From a virus, in IMG/VR virus record IMGVR_UViG_3300049595_000110, positions 1 through 20,336 of that record: 20,336 bases of DNA. One strand, given 5' to 3'. The notes beneath the pieces were generated by a model. The model ran no database searches. It saw nothing but the letters and a program-made list of their open reading frames with translations, and was not told where the DNA came from. The position numbers and the translations under genes are program-made. Positions 3,266-11,589 of the stretch are shown here, one piece after another. How positions within the stretch are numbered: the stretch's first letter is position 1; the number at the start of each line of letters is the position of its first letter.

Positions 3266-3931
3266 ATGAATCAAGAGTGGGTACAAGAGTATGATTTGCT
3301 TGTGTCTACGCTTGGCATGGAGTATTCCAGAAAATATTCTATAGTTGAACCTTCAGATATAAAACAGATTTTATGGATGTGGTTTGTTACCCATCCAAAT
3401 AAATATACAGAGTGGTCTAAGTTACCACCCAAAGATAAAGAAAAACTAATTGCAAAGTCATTGCGTAATGCTGCTCTTAAATATTGTGAGCAAGAAAAAG
3501 CCCGTAAGTTTGGCTACGATATGGTTGACCTTTACTATTACGACCCATCAGTTATCGAAGCATTTCTCCCATCTATTTTGGCAGATAGTTATGAGATACC
3601 TAGCAAGATACAAGACCTTAACTTTAAATTTGGTAAATCAGGAGAAGTAACAGACGGAAACAATTGGCTAGTTCTTAGGTCAGATATTGAAAAAGCATTC
3701 AACAAGTTAGCAGAGGCTAAACAAAATATTTTAAGACTAAGATTTACAACGGACAATTATGAGTGGAACGACTTAGCCAAAGAATTAAACACATCCGCTG
3801 ATGGTGCACGTATGAGAGTTAGCCGTGCAATTAACTCTTTGATTAGAGTATTGGGTGGATGGCGTACTTACAGCGATACAGATAACTTAGAGGCTAAAGA
3901 TGAAGAAGAAGAAGATGACACAAGAGCCTAA
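3266..3931 (+). CDS. Sigma-70-like RNA polymerase sigma factor
   Basis: Protein of 221 residues with a split sigma architecture. Residues about 20-80 form helices resembling region 2 (SDIKQILWMWF, then SLRNAALKYCEQEKARKFG). Residues about 140-197 resemble region 4, with a Lys-Gln-Asn-Ile-Leu-Arg-Leu-Arg-Phe helix and a helix-turn-helix where LAKELNTSADGARMRVSRA fits the recognition unit. The C-terminus is a short acidic tail (DEEEEDD). It could direct host RNA polymerase to phage late promoters. The region 2 match is weaker than the region 4 match, so a sigma-like DNA-binding regulator remains possible. The start at 3266 abuts the preceding stop, and the 3' end overlaps the next gene by 32 bases. 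Confidence 0.75.
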   Translation: MNQEWVQEYDLLVSTLGMEYSRKYSIVEPSDIKQILWMWFVTHPNKYTEWSKLPPKDKEKLIAKSLRNAALKYCEQEKARKFGYDMVDLYYYDPSVIEAFLPSILADSYEIPSKIQDLNFKFGKSGEVTDGNNWLVLRSDIEKAFNKLAEAKQNILRLRFTTDNYEWNDLAKELNTSADGARMRVSRAINSLIRVLGGWRTYSDTDNLEAKDEEEEDDTRA

Positions 3932-4439: not shown

Positions 4440-4716
4440 TTACCCAACATGGAAAGATATACCATCATGTACTGGTATTGATGTAGAAGTATTTTTTACT
4501 GAAGAAAAGGGTAATTATCCCCATCTTAATTATATTAAAAAACTATGCAGTACTTGCCCAGTACAAGTCCAATGTTTTGACTATGCAATTGAAAATTTAG
4601 TTGAAGGAATTTGGGGCGGTACTACTAAAAAAGAAAGGGATAAGCATAGAAGTAAACGTGGAATAATTGGTAAGACAGTTGTTCCTGCTTCTATATTTAA
4701 TAGTAATTATGAATAG
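4432..4716 (+). CDS. whiB: WhiB-family iron-sulfur transcription regulator
   Basis: Protein of 94 residues with the diagnostic WhiB cysteines Cys13, Cys39-x2-Cys42-x5-Cys48, which ligate a [4Fe-4S] cluster, and the GIWGG turn at 59-63 followed by a basic segment (KKERDKHRSKRG). WhiB-like proteins bind region 4 of the host principal sigma factor and redirect promoter choice, and phage copies can repress host whiB genes. It starts at TTG 4432 with AGGTG six bases upstream and overlaps the previous small ORF. It lies in the same operon as a sigma-like factor and zinc ribbons, consistent with transcriptional takeover. This gene is the main evidence that the host is an actinobacterium. Confidence 0.92.
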   Translation: MIDYPTWKDIPSCTGIDVEVFFTEEKGNYPHLNYIKKLCSTCPVQVQCFDYAIENLVEGIWGGTTKKERDKHRSKRGIIGKTVVPASIFNSNYE

Positions 4717-5618: not shown

Positions 5619-5670
5619 AAAACAAAAAAACCCCCCAACCAGATAAAACTGGAAGGGGGGTTTTGTTTTG
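5619..5670. terminator. Bidirectional intrinsic terminator between convergent operons
   Basis: CCCCCC (5631-5636) pairs with GGGGGG (5655-5660) and CCAG (5639-5642) with CTGG (5649-5652), around an ATAAAA loop and an AA/AA internal mismatch. The stem is preceded by an A-rich run (5619-5630) and followed by TTTTGTTTT (5661-5669), so each strand has a U-tract after its hairpin. It lies between the last + gene (stop 5603) and the last - gene (stop 5677) and would stop transcription from both sides. Confidence 0.93.
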
Positions 5671-5676
5671 CTATTA

Positions 5677-5868
5677 CTACTTAGTAAGCCCAAACTCTGG
5701 TGCTGACTTGTCCAATGCTTTTAATATAGGACCAACTAAACCTGCAACAAATGCTGCTGCTAATACTTTAGGGTCACGTTGCCCTGCTGTATACAATGCA
5801 ACTGCTGCGGCAGCAGCGGCACGAATGTATGAGAGTGCAATTTGTTTTGCTTTTTCTTTATTTATCAT
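5677..5868 (-). CDS. Small membrane protein, possible holin
   Basis: Protein of 63 residues with a basic N-terminus (MINKEKAKQ), an Ala-rich helix (AAAAAAVALYTAG) and a second hydrophobic helix (VLAAAFVAGLVGPIL) joined by a QRDPK turn, then a polar tail ending FGLTK. Two short transmembrane helices are plausible. Similar Ala-rich peptides with a DPK turn occur beside endolysins in actinophages. The start is well supported by TAAGGAG five bases upstream. It follows the endolysin by eight bases and is the last gene of the late operon before the terminator. A holin role is inferred from size and place only. Confidence 0.7.
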   Translation of the reverse strand: MINKEKAKQIALSYIRAAAAAAVALYTAGQRDPKVLAAAFVAGLVGPILKALDKSAPEFGLTK

Positions 5869-5876
5869 GGTTCTCC

Positions 5877-6614
5877 TTAAAGGAACTTAATTAATTCAGC
5901 CCAAGTTTTTGGACCGATGATACCATTGGAATCAATTACATCGTGATTATCTTGGAACTTAATCACAGCAGCCTTGGTCTTAGGACCATAGATTCCATCA
6001 GCAACTAAAGCAAGGGCTTTTTGTACAATCTTTACGCCATTGCTTCTATCCCCAGGTTTAATAGTCCCAGGAAATTCTGGTTTATCTGATACTGGTATAG
6101 CAACATTAACTTCATTGCCTACATAGTTGGGGCGACCAAAACCTACAATAGATACCATTACCTTTTTCTTATTGGCAATATATCCACGAGTCTTAACGGC
6201 TACCTCACCACCATTACGCTGGTCTCCCTTGGGATTACCAGCAGTATTACCCTCGATACAAGTAACAGTTCCATCTCCGTTGTTTTCAATTACAATACCA
6301 ACGTGAGAGATTCTATCTACGTTATCTCCAGGGAAATCAAAGAAAGCAATATCGCCAGGTACTGGCTTAGCATTCTTAGCATCAGTCCAAACGTTCATCT
6401 TTTTAAATGCACCAGCACCAGCCACAGTAGATACCATATTAGGTACCTTTACTCCTGCTTGGTTAGCACACCACATAACAAATGAACCACACCAAGGTAG
6501 AAAGTTTGCCTTAGTAAAGGCACCATACTTGGTTTCATTATTCTTTGGACCTTCGATAGTTCCAACTTCTTTTTTGGCAACCTCAAGGATTGCAGCAACT
6601 GTTCCCTTTTTCAT
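5877..6614 (-). CDS. Endolysin: CHAP amidase/peptidase with PG-binding domain
   Basis: Protein of 245 residues. The N-terminal catalytic domain (about 5-160) is CHAP/NlpC-like, with the nucleophile in PWCGSFV (Cys42), the PGDIAFF turn (86-92), the SHVGIV histidine (His104) and a CIEGN segment (119-123) supplying the polar partner. The C-terminal region (about 183-245) is a peptidoglycan-binding domain of PF01471 type, with repeated GIYGPKT / GIIGPKTW elements. It should cleave the host cell wall peptide at the end of infection. There is no signal peptide, so it depends on a holin for release. The start ATG overlaps the upstream TAA (TAATG). Membrane-protein genes flank it on both sides, forming the lysis cassette. 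Confidence 0.92.
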   Translation of the reverse strand: MKKGTVAAILEVAKKEVGTIEGPKNNETKYGAFTKANFLPWCGSFVMWCANQAGVKVPNMVSTVAGAGAFKKMNVWTDAKNAKPVPGDIAFFDFPGDNVDRISHVGIVIENNGDGTVTCIEGNTAGNPKGDQRNGGEVAVKTRGYIANKKKVMVSIVGFGRPNYVGNEVNVAIPVSDKPEFPGTIKPGDRSNGVKIVQKALALVADGIYGPKTKAAVIKFQDNHDVIDSNGIIGPKTWAELIKFL

Positions 6615-6925
6615 TAGTTATAGTTAGGGTCAATCTTTGCTTGCTTATCTGCAGCCTGACGAGTTTCTACTTCTGTATCAGCAACAGTCTTTGCGCCTTT
6701 ATCTACAGTTGAAAATGCGGCATTAATTTCATCAAGAGATAATTTGCCATCATCCATAAATGCACGGGCTAACTTTTCTACTACTGCTGCTACTGCTGTA
6801 AGACCAGCCACAGTTACTGCTGTTATTGTATCTACACCAGCGATAGCACCAGCGCCAATCACAGATAAACCGCTTGCTGCAAATACTGCAACAATACGCA
6901 TTAATACATTTTTTAACGAGGCCAT
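6614..6925 (-). CDS. Holin-like membrane protein with half EF-hand motif
   Basis: Protein of 103 residues. Two hydrophobic helices (about 8-30 and 33-50) are joined by a short AGVDT turn. They are followed by a DDGKLSLDEINAAF segment (58-71) that looks like the second half of an EF-hand loop and is common behind holin helices in phages, then a charged Ala-rich tail. Its position directly before the endolysin, with TAATG coupling, makes it the strongest holin candidate here. AAGGAA precedes the ATG at 6925. No biochemical function can be proven from sequence. Confidence 0.78.
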   Translation of the reverse strand: MASLKNVLMRIVAVFAASGLSVIGAGAIAGVDTITAVTVAGLTAVAAVVEKLARAFMDDGKLSLDEINAAFSTVDKGAKTVADTEVETRQAADKQAKIDPNYN

Positions 6926-6944: not shown

Positions 6945-7043
6945 TTAAATTGACATCCAACCTTGATATTCAGCCTCTGGATTATCCATCAGCCATTGTT
7001 GCCTTAATTTATTTTGGTGTTCCCAATCAATATCATTACTCAT
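6945..7043 (-). CDS. 32-residue Trp-rich microprotein
   Basis: ATG at 7043 to TAA at 6945-6947. The peptide has three Trp residues (DWEHQ, QQWLMD, GWMSI) and an acidic, polar character with no membrane helix. It overlaps the end of the upstream 55-residue membrane-protein gene by eight bases. No good Shine-Dalgarno is visible, so it would depend on coupled translation. It fills an otherwise empty gap between two lysis-region genes. I cannot assign a family. Confidence 0.5.
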   Translation of the reverse strand: MSNDIDWEHQNKLRQQWLMDNPEAEYQGWMSI

Positions 7044-7203
7044 CGTTAGAGTTACGCAATGGATAAGTGATTGCCCAAACTACTAAAGTCAGTATGATTG
7101 CATAACCAACTACAGTCTTTGCAGAGCCAGTCAATACAACCCAAGCAATAAACATACCTAGCAAGGTCCATAATTGTTGAACCATATCTTTTAATACTTT
7201 CAA
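7036..7203 (-). CDS. 55-residue two-helix membrane protein, holin candidate
   Basis: The frame starts at TTG 7203, six bases after AAGGAG, and ends at TAA 7036-7038. A short basic N-terminus (MKVLKDMVQQ) is followed by helix 11-26 (LWTLLGMFIAWVVLTG), a SAKT turn, helix 30-49 (containing GYAIILTLVVWAITYP) and an acidic tail. This is a helical hairpin of small-holin size. The TTG overlaps the stop of the upstream secreted-protein gene by four bases (TTGA), so translation is coupled. It is distinct from the two other small membrane proteins nearby. Its ORF is under 60 codons and easily missed. Confidence 0.7.
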   Translation of the reverse strand: MKVLKDMVQQLWTLLGMFIAWVVLTGSAKTVVGYAIILTLVVWAITYPLRNSNDE

Positions 7204-8417
7204 GGTTTTCTCCTTTTGTATAACTTAATGTTGTCATTTGATGGCACACTAGTACCTCCACTTGTAGGTGTAGGTGTGGCTGTTTTAGCAGCGGAAGTTA
7301 CGGCTACTGCATTAACAGCAGCCTGAGTAGCAATAACGGAAGCAATGATTGTATTCTCTGATTCTGTTCTTTCTTCTTCAGACATATCAGCACCTATATT
7401 TGAAAGAGCAGTAAGCACCTCTGCTGGGTTATCAAAGATTGCTGAGATTAACTCTGCTGGATTCTCTAATAACTGTAGGGCTACTACTGTGCCAGCCTCA
7501 AGCACTACACCATTGTCTAATTGAACTGGTGTTTCAGGTGCAAGGGTTTCTAATTCAACTTCATTTGCCTGTACAACTTCTTCTACAGGTGGTGCTTCTT
7601 CTTCAACAGGTGGCTCTTGTTCTTCCATAGGTGGCTCTTCAGCCTCTACAGGTGGTTCCTCGACTGGGATAGGTGGTTCTTCCACTTCCTCAGGGGGTTC
7701 CTCAGCCTCTATAGGAGGCTCTTCTGCCTCTACTGGAGGTTCTTCAGCCTCAATGGGTGGTTCTTCTACTTCTGCTGGAGGCTCAGGCTCTACAGCAGGG
7801 GGAGGAATAACAATTGCAGGGGGTTCAGGTGCTACAACAGGAGGCTCAGGAGCAGGGGTTGGTGCTACTGGAGTACTGGTATCTACCGTTGCTGTAGTTC
7901 CATCAACTGTTGAAGTATTGGTATCAACCACAACAGTACCTGTATCTACTACTACAGTAGAGGTATCTCTAGGTGGTATCAAGTTACTGCTTAAAGTATA
8001 AGTTCCTATTGGTCTTTGACCAGCAACTACATAGTCATAAGATGTAGCACGAATTGTATAAGTATCAGCGTTTAATGTTCCGCTAAGTGCTGATGCAAAA
8101 TAATTATTTATAGAATGGTTACTATCATCATCTCCCCTAATAGGGTTGACGGTAGTGCTATCAGCAACGCCACGATATAACCATATCCAAGAATCTACCC
8201 AAGCCACACGCTCTACTGTTTGTGAATCAACCACTTCAAATCGTGGTCCAGTAGTGGTAGTAATTGTATAGGCTGTTGTTGTATCTACTTGAACTACTAC
8301 ATCTACATAAGCAGTCGTAGCATCAAGATTAATTATTACATCTTCTGCGCTTGCTGGATTTGGTATAAAAAGTAAACTAATCCCTATTACTAAGGAGCAT
8401 ATAAATTTGGTCAACAC
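7200..8417 (-). CDS. Secreted protein: signal peptide, PPC-like domain, Pro/Glu repeats
   Basis: Protein of 405 residues. Residues 1-24 form a Sec signal peptide (basic start, LVIGISLLFI core, PASA cleavage site). Residues about 25-145 look like a bacterial pre-peptidase C-terminal (PPC) beta domain, with RGDDDSNHSINNYF and TYTIRATSY ... GTYTLSS. Thr/Val-rich linkers (150-185) are followed by a Pro/Glu repeat region (about 185-280) built on EEPPxEA units. A conserved-looking helical domain (about 315-380, with ENPAELISAIFDNPAEVL) and a basic C-terminus (KLYKRRKP) complete it. It would be exported by the infected cell. No membrane anchor or catalytic motif is seen. The start is GTG 8417 with a weak ribosome site. 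It overlaps the next upstream membrane gene by 41 bases. The function is unknown. Confidence 0.82.
   Translation of the reverse strand: MLTKFICSLVIGISLLFIPNPASAEDVIINLDATTAYVDVVVQVDTTTAYTITTTTGPRFEVVDSQTVERVAWVDSWIWLYRGVADSTTVNPIRGDDDSNHSINNYFASALSGTLNADTYTIRATSYDYVVAGQRPIGTYTLSSNLIPPRDTSTVVVDTGTVVVDTNTSTVDGTTATVDTSTPVAPTPAPEPPVVAPEPPAIVIPPPAVEPEPPAEVEEPPIEAEEPPVEAEEPPIEAEEPPEEVEEPPIPVEEPPVEAEEPPMEEQEPPVEEEAPPVEEVVQANEVELETLAPETPVQLDNGVVLEAGTVVALQLLENPAELISAIFDNPAEVLTALSNIGADMSEEERTESENTIIASVIATQAAVNAVAVTSAAKTATPTPTSGGTSVPSNDNIKLYKRRKP
7578..7796 (-). repeat. Pro/Glu-rich repeat (EEPPxEA units)
   Basis: Residues about 208-280 of the secreted protein repeat a seven-residue unit of the form EEPP(I/V)EA. 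At the DNA level it is a 21-base unit on the - strand, seen as imperfect GGTGGTTCTTC-type repeats on the + strand. The copies have drifted at third positions. Such regions form stiff extended polyproline rods and easily change copy number. Confidence 0.8.
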
Positions 8418-8580
8418 GGGTTTCCAATCGGGTAATGCGTCCCTCTAGATTATGTCCCCCGTTACCATCAGGTTTAAGTTCTGATAGATAATGTTTTACT
8501 AACCATCTAATTGAACCAGCAAAACTGGCTACAATTGTTGCGACCGCTACTGCTAAGCCAGCCCAATCTGCGCTACTCAT
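8377..8580 (-). CDS. Small membrane protein with coiled-coil tail
   Basis: Protein of 67 residues with one hydrophobic helix (about 6-28, AGLAVAVATIVASFAGSIRWLV), a flexible Gly/Asn linker near 38-44 and a C-terminal amphipathic helix (GRITRLETRVDQIYMLL) that looks like a short coiled coil. The layout is N-out/C-in or a membrane-anchored oligomer. It is shared by many small actinophage proteins annotated as holins or DUF2746-like. The ATG overlaps the tail-protein stop (TAATG). Its 3' end overlaps the secreted-protein gene by 41 bases. It may be an antiholin, spanin-like or holin component. Confidence 0.75.
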   Translation of the reverse strand: MSSADWAGLAVAVATIVASFAGSIRWLVKHYLSELKPDGNGGHNLEGRITRLETRVDQIYMLLSNRD

Positions 8581-10842: not shown

Positions 10843-11589
10843 TTACTCCTTAGGTTTTAGTTTTTCTGCTTCTTCTTTTAATTTTGCTGCTTGTTCTTGC
10901 ATCGCAACCATATTCCAATATAGTGCGTAGTAATCTATATCTAAACTAAATCGTTTCATATGCTTTACTAACGCACCTGTATGGGCGTGTACTGGTATGC
11001 CAGCAGCCCTTACCTTGCGGAAGAAAACAATATCTTCACCAATAAACTGGTCGCCTAATCCCTCTTGCTCAGCAAACATAGACTGGCTAGGATACTTAGC
11101 ACGTAATTTTGGCACAATAGATTTGTGCATTAGCACAAACCCCATACCAGCAGAGTCAACCTCTAGTAATTTATCTTTAGGTAGTGGATGTATGTACTGG
11201 ATTTCATACTCAGATATGTTCTTAAAGATACAAGGGAATGGTCTCATAACTGAGGACTCATTCTCCTTTGAAATAAAGTAAACACCACTAACTATTGGGC
11301 GTAGGTCTTTATCTGCTGCGTCCCATACCTTCTTAAGTACATCTGTAGTTAGATAGATGTCTGAATCTACCCATAGTATCCAGTCTGTCTTAACATCATT
11401 AGCCCATTTATCAAAGGCTACTTGTCTTTGTCTGCCTATCTGATTGCCTTGCACACGCATAGCATTGTTAATATGCATGCCTGCTTGTGGTGCTGTAAGT
11501 ATTACGTAGGTTAAACCTTCGGCAAACTTACCATCTACCATACCATTATCACACCAAGCAATGGTTACTGTTTCTTTTGGTCTTATCAT
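10843..11589 (-). CDS. GT-A family glycosyltransferase
   Basis: Protein of 248 residues with a GT2-like GT-A fold. An N-terminal nucleotide-binding part is followed by the WVDSDIYL motif, with the metal-binding Asp75-Ser-Asp77. Further on are VDSAGMGFVLMHKS (144-157), a GEDIVFF acid motif (184-190) and a KHMKRF histidine (His210) that can complete the metal site. The C-terminal tail is a charged coiled coil (KLKEEAEKLKPKE). It should transfer a sugar from an NDP-sugar to an acceptor that cannot be named from sequence. Being embedded between fibre and tail genes suggests glycosylation of virion proteins or alteration of host surface sugars. Start ATG 11589 has AAGGGG upstream; the 58-base gap before it holds no clear gene. 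Confidence 0.85.
   Translation of the reverse strand: MIRPKETVTIAWCDNGMVDGKFAEGLTYVILTAPQAGMHINNAMRVQGNQIGRQRQVAFDKWANDVKTDWILWVDSDIYLTTDVLKKVWDAADKDLRPIVSGVYFISKENESSVMRPFPCIFKNISEYEIQYIHPLPKDKLLEVDSAGMGFVLMHKSIVPKLRAKYPSQSMFAEQEGLGDQFIGEDIVFFRKVRAAGIPVHAHTGALVKHMKRFSLDIDYYALYWNMVAMQEQAAKLKEEAEKLKPKE

What the first reader, a model, noticed from the sequence alone, without database searches (positions are those of the whole stretch)
7200..8417. Secreted PPC-domain/proline-rod protein next to lysis genes
A Sec signal peptide, a PPC-like beta domain, a Pro/Glu repeat rod and a helical C-terminal domain are unusual for a phage late protein that is not obviously a virion part. It could coat the host surface (superinfection exclusion), help lysis of the outer layers, or be acquired from the host. 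The EEPPxEA repeat could span the thick cell wall.
Basis: partly seen in the sequence, partly recalled or inferred. Interest (0 to 1): 0.6.

Follow-up and report, generated by a model that had tools for sequence, protein, structure and literature searches.

The report
Modular cell-surface protein of lake actinophages
Viruses of freshwater actinobacteria carry an optional two-gene unit, usually beside their cell-bursting genes, that probably makes a long rod with a swappable binding tip on the surface of the infected cell; the unit is common in lake phages, absent from the annotated phage collection searched, and its exact job is untested.

Summary
ORF 7200-8417(-) encodes 405 aa: signal peptide with AxA site, a PPC-fold domain (AlphaFold2 pLDDT 90; best solved match a collagenase PPC domain), a Pro/Glu rod and a conserved C-terminal module. 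It is much more than a single odd gene. The next gene is a 55-aa two-TM protein ("dn56"), translationally coupled to it: the Shine-Dalgarno lies inside the RRKP tail. The pair occurs in hundreds of IMG/VR contigs. The C-module and dn56 stay constant while tips (PPC, PA14, SUEL lectin, a two-Cys domain) and rods (Pro-rich or helical) are exchanged. No relative was found in INPHARED phages or GTDB contigs. Hosts are actinobacterial (WhiB in 39/45 contigs); the cultured Planktophila phages F5 and E7 are kin but lack the pair, and exact empty sites exist, so it is accessory. In 123/145 loci a peptidoglycan hydrolase gene follows within 2.5 kb, and among up65-bearing phages a holin-like gene occurs only with the pair. 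Best reading: a membrane-anchored, wall-spanning, glycan-binding surface protein deployed late as an accessory of egress, analogous to LysZ or spanins. Superinfection exclusion is the main rival. Localisation and function are inferred, not shown.

The parts
7200..8417 (-). secreted PPC-tipped rod protein, 405 aa, GTG start
   Evidence: relatives
8346..8417 (-). Sec signal peptide, residues 1-24, cleavage ASA|ED inferred
   Evidence: sequence; family statistics; coordinates
7977..8342 (-). PPC-fold tip domain, residues 26-147, with invariant D-S-W and DDDSNH
   Evidence: AF2, Foldseek/VIA, alignment A6
7866..7970 (-). Thr/Val-rich DT(S/G)TVVVDT repeats, residues 150-184
   Evidence: (period 21)
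7569..7862 (-). Pro/Glu rod (EEPPxEA repeats), residues 186-283
   Evidence: 21/42-bp periods; rod-length estimate
7203..7568 (-). conserved C-terminal module, residues 284-405 (TPVQLDNGVV...IGADMSEEER...RRKP)
7290..7385 (-). C-terminal hydrophobic helix, residues 345-376, marginal transmembrane candidate
   Evidence: AF2 helix; KD18 median 1.77 in 135 family members
7203..7217 (-). KRRKP tail whose codons AAAAGGAGAAAACCT hold the Shine-Dalgarno of the next gene
   Evidence: SD-like in 145/146 loci
7036..7203 (-). 'dn56': 55-aa two-TM protein, TTG start overlapping the rod gene's stop; obligate partner
6945..7043 (-). possible 32-aa ORF between dn56 and the holin-like gene
   Evidence: translation only
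8377..8580 (-). 'up65': 67-aa protein, one N-terminal TM segment plus coiled coil, overlaps start of rod gene
   Evidence: (phrog_9869)
6614..6925 (-). holin-like membrane protein (hol80 family)
   Evidence: (phrog_26427 strong, phrog_443 holin weak)
5877..6614 (-). CHAP + PG_binding_1 endolysin
5677..5868 (-). Ala-rich 63-aa membrane-type protein, last gene of the late operon
5631..5656 (-). terminator-like hairpin with T7 tail at the end of the late operon
4450..4641 (+). WhiB domain: indicates an actinobacterial host
   Evidence: E 2e-17

Best explanation
The gene and its 55-aa partner form an accessory surface-display cassette used at the end of infection. Shown here: the two genes occur together in every locus that could be read, are translationally coupled, combine a constant C-terminal module and constant small membrane protein with exchangeable ectodomains, can be absent from close kin, and mostly sit in the lysis module. 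Inferred: the protein is exported by Sec, its signal peptide is removed, its C-terminal helix is held in the membrane with dn56, the rod crosses the cell wall and the tip binds glycans of the host's own outer surface. Inferred function: a LysZ- or spanin-like accessory of egress, in which the tether between membrane and outer envelope helps the envelope come apart once the endolysin has cut the wall. The tip varies because host surface glycans vary.
For: Pairing: dn56 beside the rod gene in 105/113 loci by single-sequence search, the other complete loci recovered by HMM; in the 80 best of >=591 dn56 loci all with enough upstream sequence carry the C-module upstream (for L208). Coupling: stop/start overlap and SD within the RRKP codons, 145/146. 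Tip exchange: PPC, PA14 and SUEL lectin over cut-off, two-Cys domain; N/C mosaics such as L031 vs L142, dS 0.13 vs 1.31. Accessory: 23 of 66 up65 loci have the cassette, 43 do not, with exact empty sites in L274/L275/L334; absent from cultured Planktophila phages F5 and E7. Lysis link: PG hydrolase on the same strand within 2.5 kb downstream in 123/145 loci; L203, L230 and L239 have rod, dn56, following small gene(s) and CHAP as their own strand-separate operon; hol80 in 16/23 cassette loci and 0 of the rest, CHAP vs M15 p = 6e-6. Precedent: LysZ of corynephages, a glycan-linked accessory lysis protein whose loss gives small plaques (PMC13056207).
Against: No experiment. In L155/L157/L161/L164-type phages the pair lies among head genes with no lysis gene detected nearby, and 21/145 loci had no detected hydrolase downstream. 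The lysis association is phylogenetically confounded. The C-terminal helix is only marginally hydrophobic and its model is weak. The conserved basic tail is partly explained by the overlapping SD. No outer layer is established for these hosts that would need a tether. Glycan binding by the PPC tip is by analogy only.
Confidence: 0.4

Rival explanations
1. Superinfection exclusion / receptor masking: the tip covers the surface glycan used as phage receptor, keeping other phages out late in infection and stopping progeny from being lost on debris, as Llp of T5 and BF23 does.
For: Accessory and patchy distribution; exchangeable tips with glycan-binding domains on a constant anchor; Llp precedent, with unrelated blockers for different receptors (PMC4728585).
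Against: Linked to lysis genes rather than to a receptor-binding gene, whereas llp lies next to the receptor-binding gene. In 20 cassette-bearing contigs plus F5 and E7, no gene family tracked tip type after correction for 75 tests; the strongest was the holin-like gene, p 0.003 uncorrected. Late operon, no separate promoter evident.
Confidence: 0.3
2. Sensor that sets lysis timing: the ectodomain reads conditions outside and, through dn56, restrains or triggers the holin, in the manner of T4 RI and T.
For: Membrane partner, co-operon with holin-like and endolysin genes.
Against: No sequence or fold link to RI was found or looked for beyond the family libraries; rods tens of nm long are not needed for a periplasmic antiholin.
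Confidence: 0.1
3. Adhesin that makes infected cells stick to particles, to grazers or to new host cells, or alters predation.
For: Adhesin-like design: lectin/PA14 tip, rod, membrane anchor.
Against: A benefit on an already doomed cell is unclear; no data on target.
Confidence: 0.1
4. Virion structural protein (fibre or decoration).
For: Late gene close to structural genes; in L159/L165 it lies among head genes.
Against: Conserved Sec signal peptides, membrane-protein partner, no homology to any PHROG virion family, dispensable in kin.
Confidence: 0.05

Closest known systems
LysZ of Corynebacterium phages CL31 and Cog
   Same: Accessory protein of actinophage lysis modules proposed to act on envelope glycans from the outside of the membrane; dispensable (small plaques) (PMC13056207).
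   Different: LysZ is 177 aa with one TM segment, N-in/C-out; here a cleavable signal peptide, a long rod, a C-terminal helix and an obligate two-TM partner. No homology claimed.
Unimolecular spanin (T1 gp11)
   Same: N-terminal export signal, C-terminal membrane-type helix, gene next to holin and endolysin (PMC6139136).
   Different: No lipobox Cys, an actinobacterial host, exchangeable lectin-type tips, needs dn56.
Llp receptor-blocking lipoproteins of T5/BF23
   Same: Exported phage protein on the infected cell; unrelated versions may serve different receptors (PMC4728585).
   Different: Not a lipoprotein; lies beside lysis genes instead of the receptor-binding gene; rod and partner have no counterpart.
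PPC domain / collagenase collagen-binding domain (PF04151 fold; 5sv5, 1nqj)
   Same: Same beta-sandwich fold for residues 26-147, acidic DDD motif.
   Different: Below detection by the Pfam PPC HMM; 13-14% identity; attached to a phage display cassette, not to a peptidase.
Cultured Planktophila phages LanE43AprE7/F5
   Same: Same phage backbone (capsid region 76% nt identity, same up65, phrog_11667-like and ala63 genes).
   Different: Lack both genes of the cassette and the CHAP endolysin; F5 uses an M15 endolysin directly after up65.

Membership tests
PPC domain fold | beta-sandwich fold of pre-peptidase C-terminal domains | tested here: met
   AF2 pLDDT 89.9; Foldseek 5sv5 E 3.7e-4, VIA Z 10.5
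PPC domain (Pfam PF04151) | match to the Pfam model over its cut-off | tested here: not met
   no hit
Unimolecular spanin | lipoylation signal (lipobox Cys) at the N-terminus | tested here: not met
   signal peptide ends ASA|ED without Cys; family mostly AxA sites
Unimolecular spanin | C-terminal transmembrane domain | tested here: inconclusive
   KD18 median 1.77, 122/135 at or above 1.6, but with conserved polar residues; AF2 pLDDT 60
Unimolecular spanin | located in the lysis cassette | tested here: met
   window gene order; 123/145 loci
LysZ | single N-terminal TM segment, N-in/C-out | tested here: not met
   signal peptide with AxA site at the N-terminus and a hydrophobic helix at the C-terminus; no LysZ sequence was compared
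LysZ | acts on envelope glycans and aids plaque formation | not testable with these tools
   needs a deletion phage
Llp-type receptor blocker | lipoprotein | tested here: not met
   no lipobox
Llp-type receptor blocker | adjacent to the receptor-binding protein gene | tested here: inconclusive
   neighbours are up65 and lysis genes, but the receptor-binding gene of these phages is unknown
Llp-type receptor blocker | expression blocks adsorption | not testable with these tools
   needs expression in a host strain
Holin (dn56) | small protein with two hydrophobic segments in the lysis region | tested here: met
   alignment A4
Holin (dn56) | homology to a known holin family | tested here: not met
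   no significant PHROG or Pfam match
Phage virion protein | homology to a known structural family | tested here: not met
   PHROGs: only phrog_25538 through the Pro/Glu repeat, none for the C-module

The most novel reading that the evidence does not exclude
The conserved C-terminal module plus dn56 is a dedicated two-component display platform by which apparently virulent actinophages place interchangeable glycan-binding tips, on rods some tens of nm long, on the surface of the infected cell: a new kind of phage-encoded cell-surface appendage, not reducible to holin, endolysin, spanin or receptor-blocking lipoprotein.
Probability: 0.4. Interest if true: 0.8.

Novelty: new variant of a known kind. 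Interest (0 to 1): 0.62.

Why it matters
Nanopelagicales and their phages are among the most abundant lake microbes, and the first phages on this order were cultured only recently. A modular protein coded in hundreds of their phage contigs, with no annotated relative found, points to an unrecognised step in how such phages leave or defend a host cell. The constant anchor with exchangeable tips may record which surface glycans matter for these hosts, and cassette-free cultured relatives make a with/without comparison in a laboratory phage-host pair conceivable.

Tried and rejected
Pfam, PHROGs, NCBIfam and PDB sequence searches with the whole protein: nothing informative. The phrog_25538 hit is only the Pro/Glu repeat. 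tblastn of the rod protein, two diverse C-modules and dn56 against INPHARED: no match. C-module profile in GTDB contigs twice: pattern hits but no relative, so host origin was not supported. PDB profile searches with A6 and A3: nothing credible. Tip type versus other gene families in 20 cassette-bearing contigs plus F5 and E7, as a test of receptor masking: nothing survives correction for 75 families. 'dn56 without the rod' in L208 turned out to be rod, an inserted 75-aa two-TM gene, then dn56. A conserved RRKP sorting tail was considered as a stand-alone motif, but its codons carry the SD of dn56, so conservation there is not independent evidence. Lysogenic conversion: integrase found in 1 of 45 records only, though many are fragments.

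Full report
What is there. The ORF at 7200-8417(-) is real and complete: GTG start, 405 aa. It has a signal peptide (residues 1-24, ASA|ED), a beta-sandwich domain (26-147), Thr/Val repeats (150-184), a Pro/Glu rod (186-283; 21/42-bp tandem array) and a C-terminal module (284-405). The Pfam PPC model does not see the beta domain, but AlphaFold2 on 28 relatives gives pLDDT 89.9 and the closest solved structure is the PPC domain of a collagenase, 5sv5 (E 3.7e-4; Z 10.5).

A large family. Searches of IMG/VR with the protein and with its two ends returned well over a hundred loci. N and C domains evolve under purifying selection (median dN/dS about 0.2-0.3) and the rod is looser (0.35-0.42); several pairs have nearly identical N domains but distant C domains, or the reverse, i.e. 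recombination between domains. In siblings the same C-terminal module carries other ectodomains: a two-Cys domain, a 'VSYQIPL' domain, coiled-coil rods, and in wider relatives PA14 and SUEL-lectin domains over the Pfam cut-offs. Of 135 complete members, 134 have a hydrophobic signal core preceded by K/R and 118 an AxA site; the C-terminal helix is marginally hydrophobic (KD18 median 1.77) and all have at least two K/R in the last eight residues.

An obligate partner. Immediately downstream lies a 55-60 aa protein with two hydrophobic segments and the motif TLLGMFxAWVVLxGSAKTVVGYAI (window 7036-7203). It is found beside the rod gene in 105/113 loci; of the remaining eight, five end at a contig edge and three were recovered with an HMM. 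A profile scan gave at least 591 loci; in the best 80 every locus with enough upstream sequence carries the rod gene with the same C-module, in L208 with one small gene inserted. Only the best 80 were read, which favours close relatives. The rod's stop overlaps or nearly touches the dn56 start, and the codons of the RRKP tail contain the Shine-Dalgarno of dn56 in 145 of 146 loci, with AGG strongly enriched there. This indicates translational coupling; it also means that conservation of the tail is partly explained by the DNA signal.

Accessory nature and hosts. WhiB, an actinobacterial marker, is present in the window and in 39/45 carrier contigs. The nearest annotated phages, OX376640/OX376641, are the cultured Planktophila phages LanE43AprE7 and F5 (PMC10202952). 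Neither has the rod or dn56 (HMM search), and in F5 up65 is followed directly by an M15 endolysin. Among 66 up65 loci with enough downstream sequence, 23 carry the cassette and 43 do not; L274, L275 and L334 are exact empty sites where up65 runs straight into the CHAP endolysin. The cassette is thus dispensable for assembly and lysis in kin. An integrase was seen in 1 of 45 contigs, so most carriers are not obviously temperate, with the caveat that many contigs are fragments.

Link to lysis. A PG hydrolase gene lies on the same strand within 2.5 kb downstream in 123/145 distinct loci. In L203, L230 and L239 the rod, dn56, the following small gene(s) and the CHAP endolysin form an operon of their own facing away from the neighbouring genes. 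Among up65 loci the holin-like hol80 gene occurs in 16 of 23 with the cassette and in none of the rest; CHAP rather than M15 endolysin goes with the cassette (p 6e-6). These associations are confounded by shared ancestry. Against a strict lysis role, L155/L157/L161/L164-type phages keep the pair among head genes.

Reading. Shown: a translationally coupled two-gene unit with a constant base and exchangeable ectodomains behind signal peptides, accessory, in the late region, and mostly in lysis modules of actinophages. Inferred: membrane anchoring by the C-terminal helix with dn56, a rod crossing the wall (about 38 nm here if the proline rod is extended; family medians 45 nm for proline rods and 59 nm for helical ones), and a tip that binds surface glycans. 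I commit to an accessory egress function, comparable to LysZ of corynephages (PMC13056207) or to a spanin (PMC6139136), at about 0.4. Superinfection exclusion or receptor masking (Llp-like; PMC4728585) is at about 0.3: the data do not separate the two, since both need the same surface binding. A test of tip type against other genes in 20 cassette-bearing contigs (with F5 and E7 as cassette-free reference) did not point to a receptor-binding gene. Virion protein is unlikely.

Membership. It is not a u-spanin (no lipobox), not LysZ (different topology; no LysZ sequence was compared), and not an Llp-type lipoprotein. The PPC tip is a PPC by fold only. dn56 has no known family. No relative of the cassette was found in 50,697 INPHARED records, and none of the C-module in GTDB contigs by two pattern-based scans. 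Library papers read here on lake actinophages did not mention it where searched, but the library is incomplete, so prior description cannot be excluded.

Noticed in passing
6614-6925 (-): Strong hit to phrog_26427, annotated 'nuclease', although the protein is a short holin-like membrane protein (weak phrog_443 holin): the PHROG label looks wrong.
   Followed up: partly
8377-8580 (-): up65: short protein with one TM segment and coiled coil, in at least 590 IMG/VR loci; its last 41 bp overlap the start of the rod gene. Possibly a lysis protein with a topology like LysF1b of mycobacteriophages.
   Followed up: partly
10843-11589 (-): Glycosyltransferase (phrog_34859, E 3e-115) in the late region; also reported in cultured Planktophila phages.
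   Followed up: no
L097:4517-5923, L198, L203, L240: Rods made of AEAARIAAE-type alpha-helical repeats replace the proline rods, a change of rod type with a similar estimated reach.
   Followed up: partly
L155, L159, L165: Same pair with a PPC tip 69-77% identical to the window's, but placed among head genes of a different phage type, implying transfer of the cassette or its tip.
   Followed up: partly
3266-3931 (+): Sigma-70 region 4-like protein (weak Pfam match), resembling the sigma factor reported in Planktophila phages.
   Followed up: no
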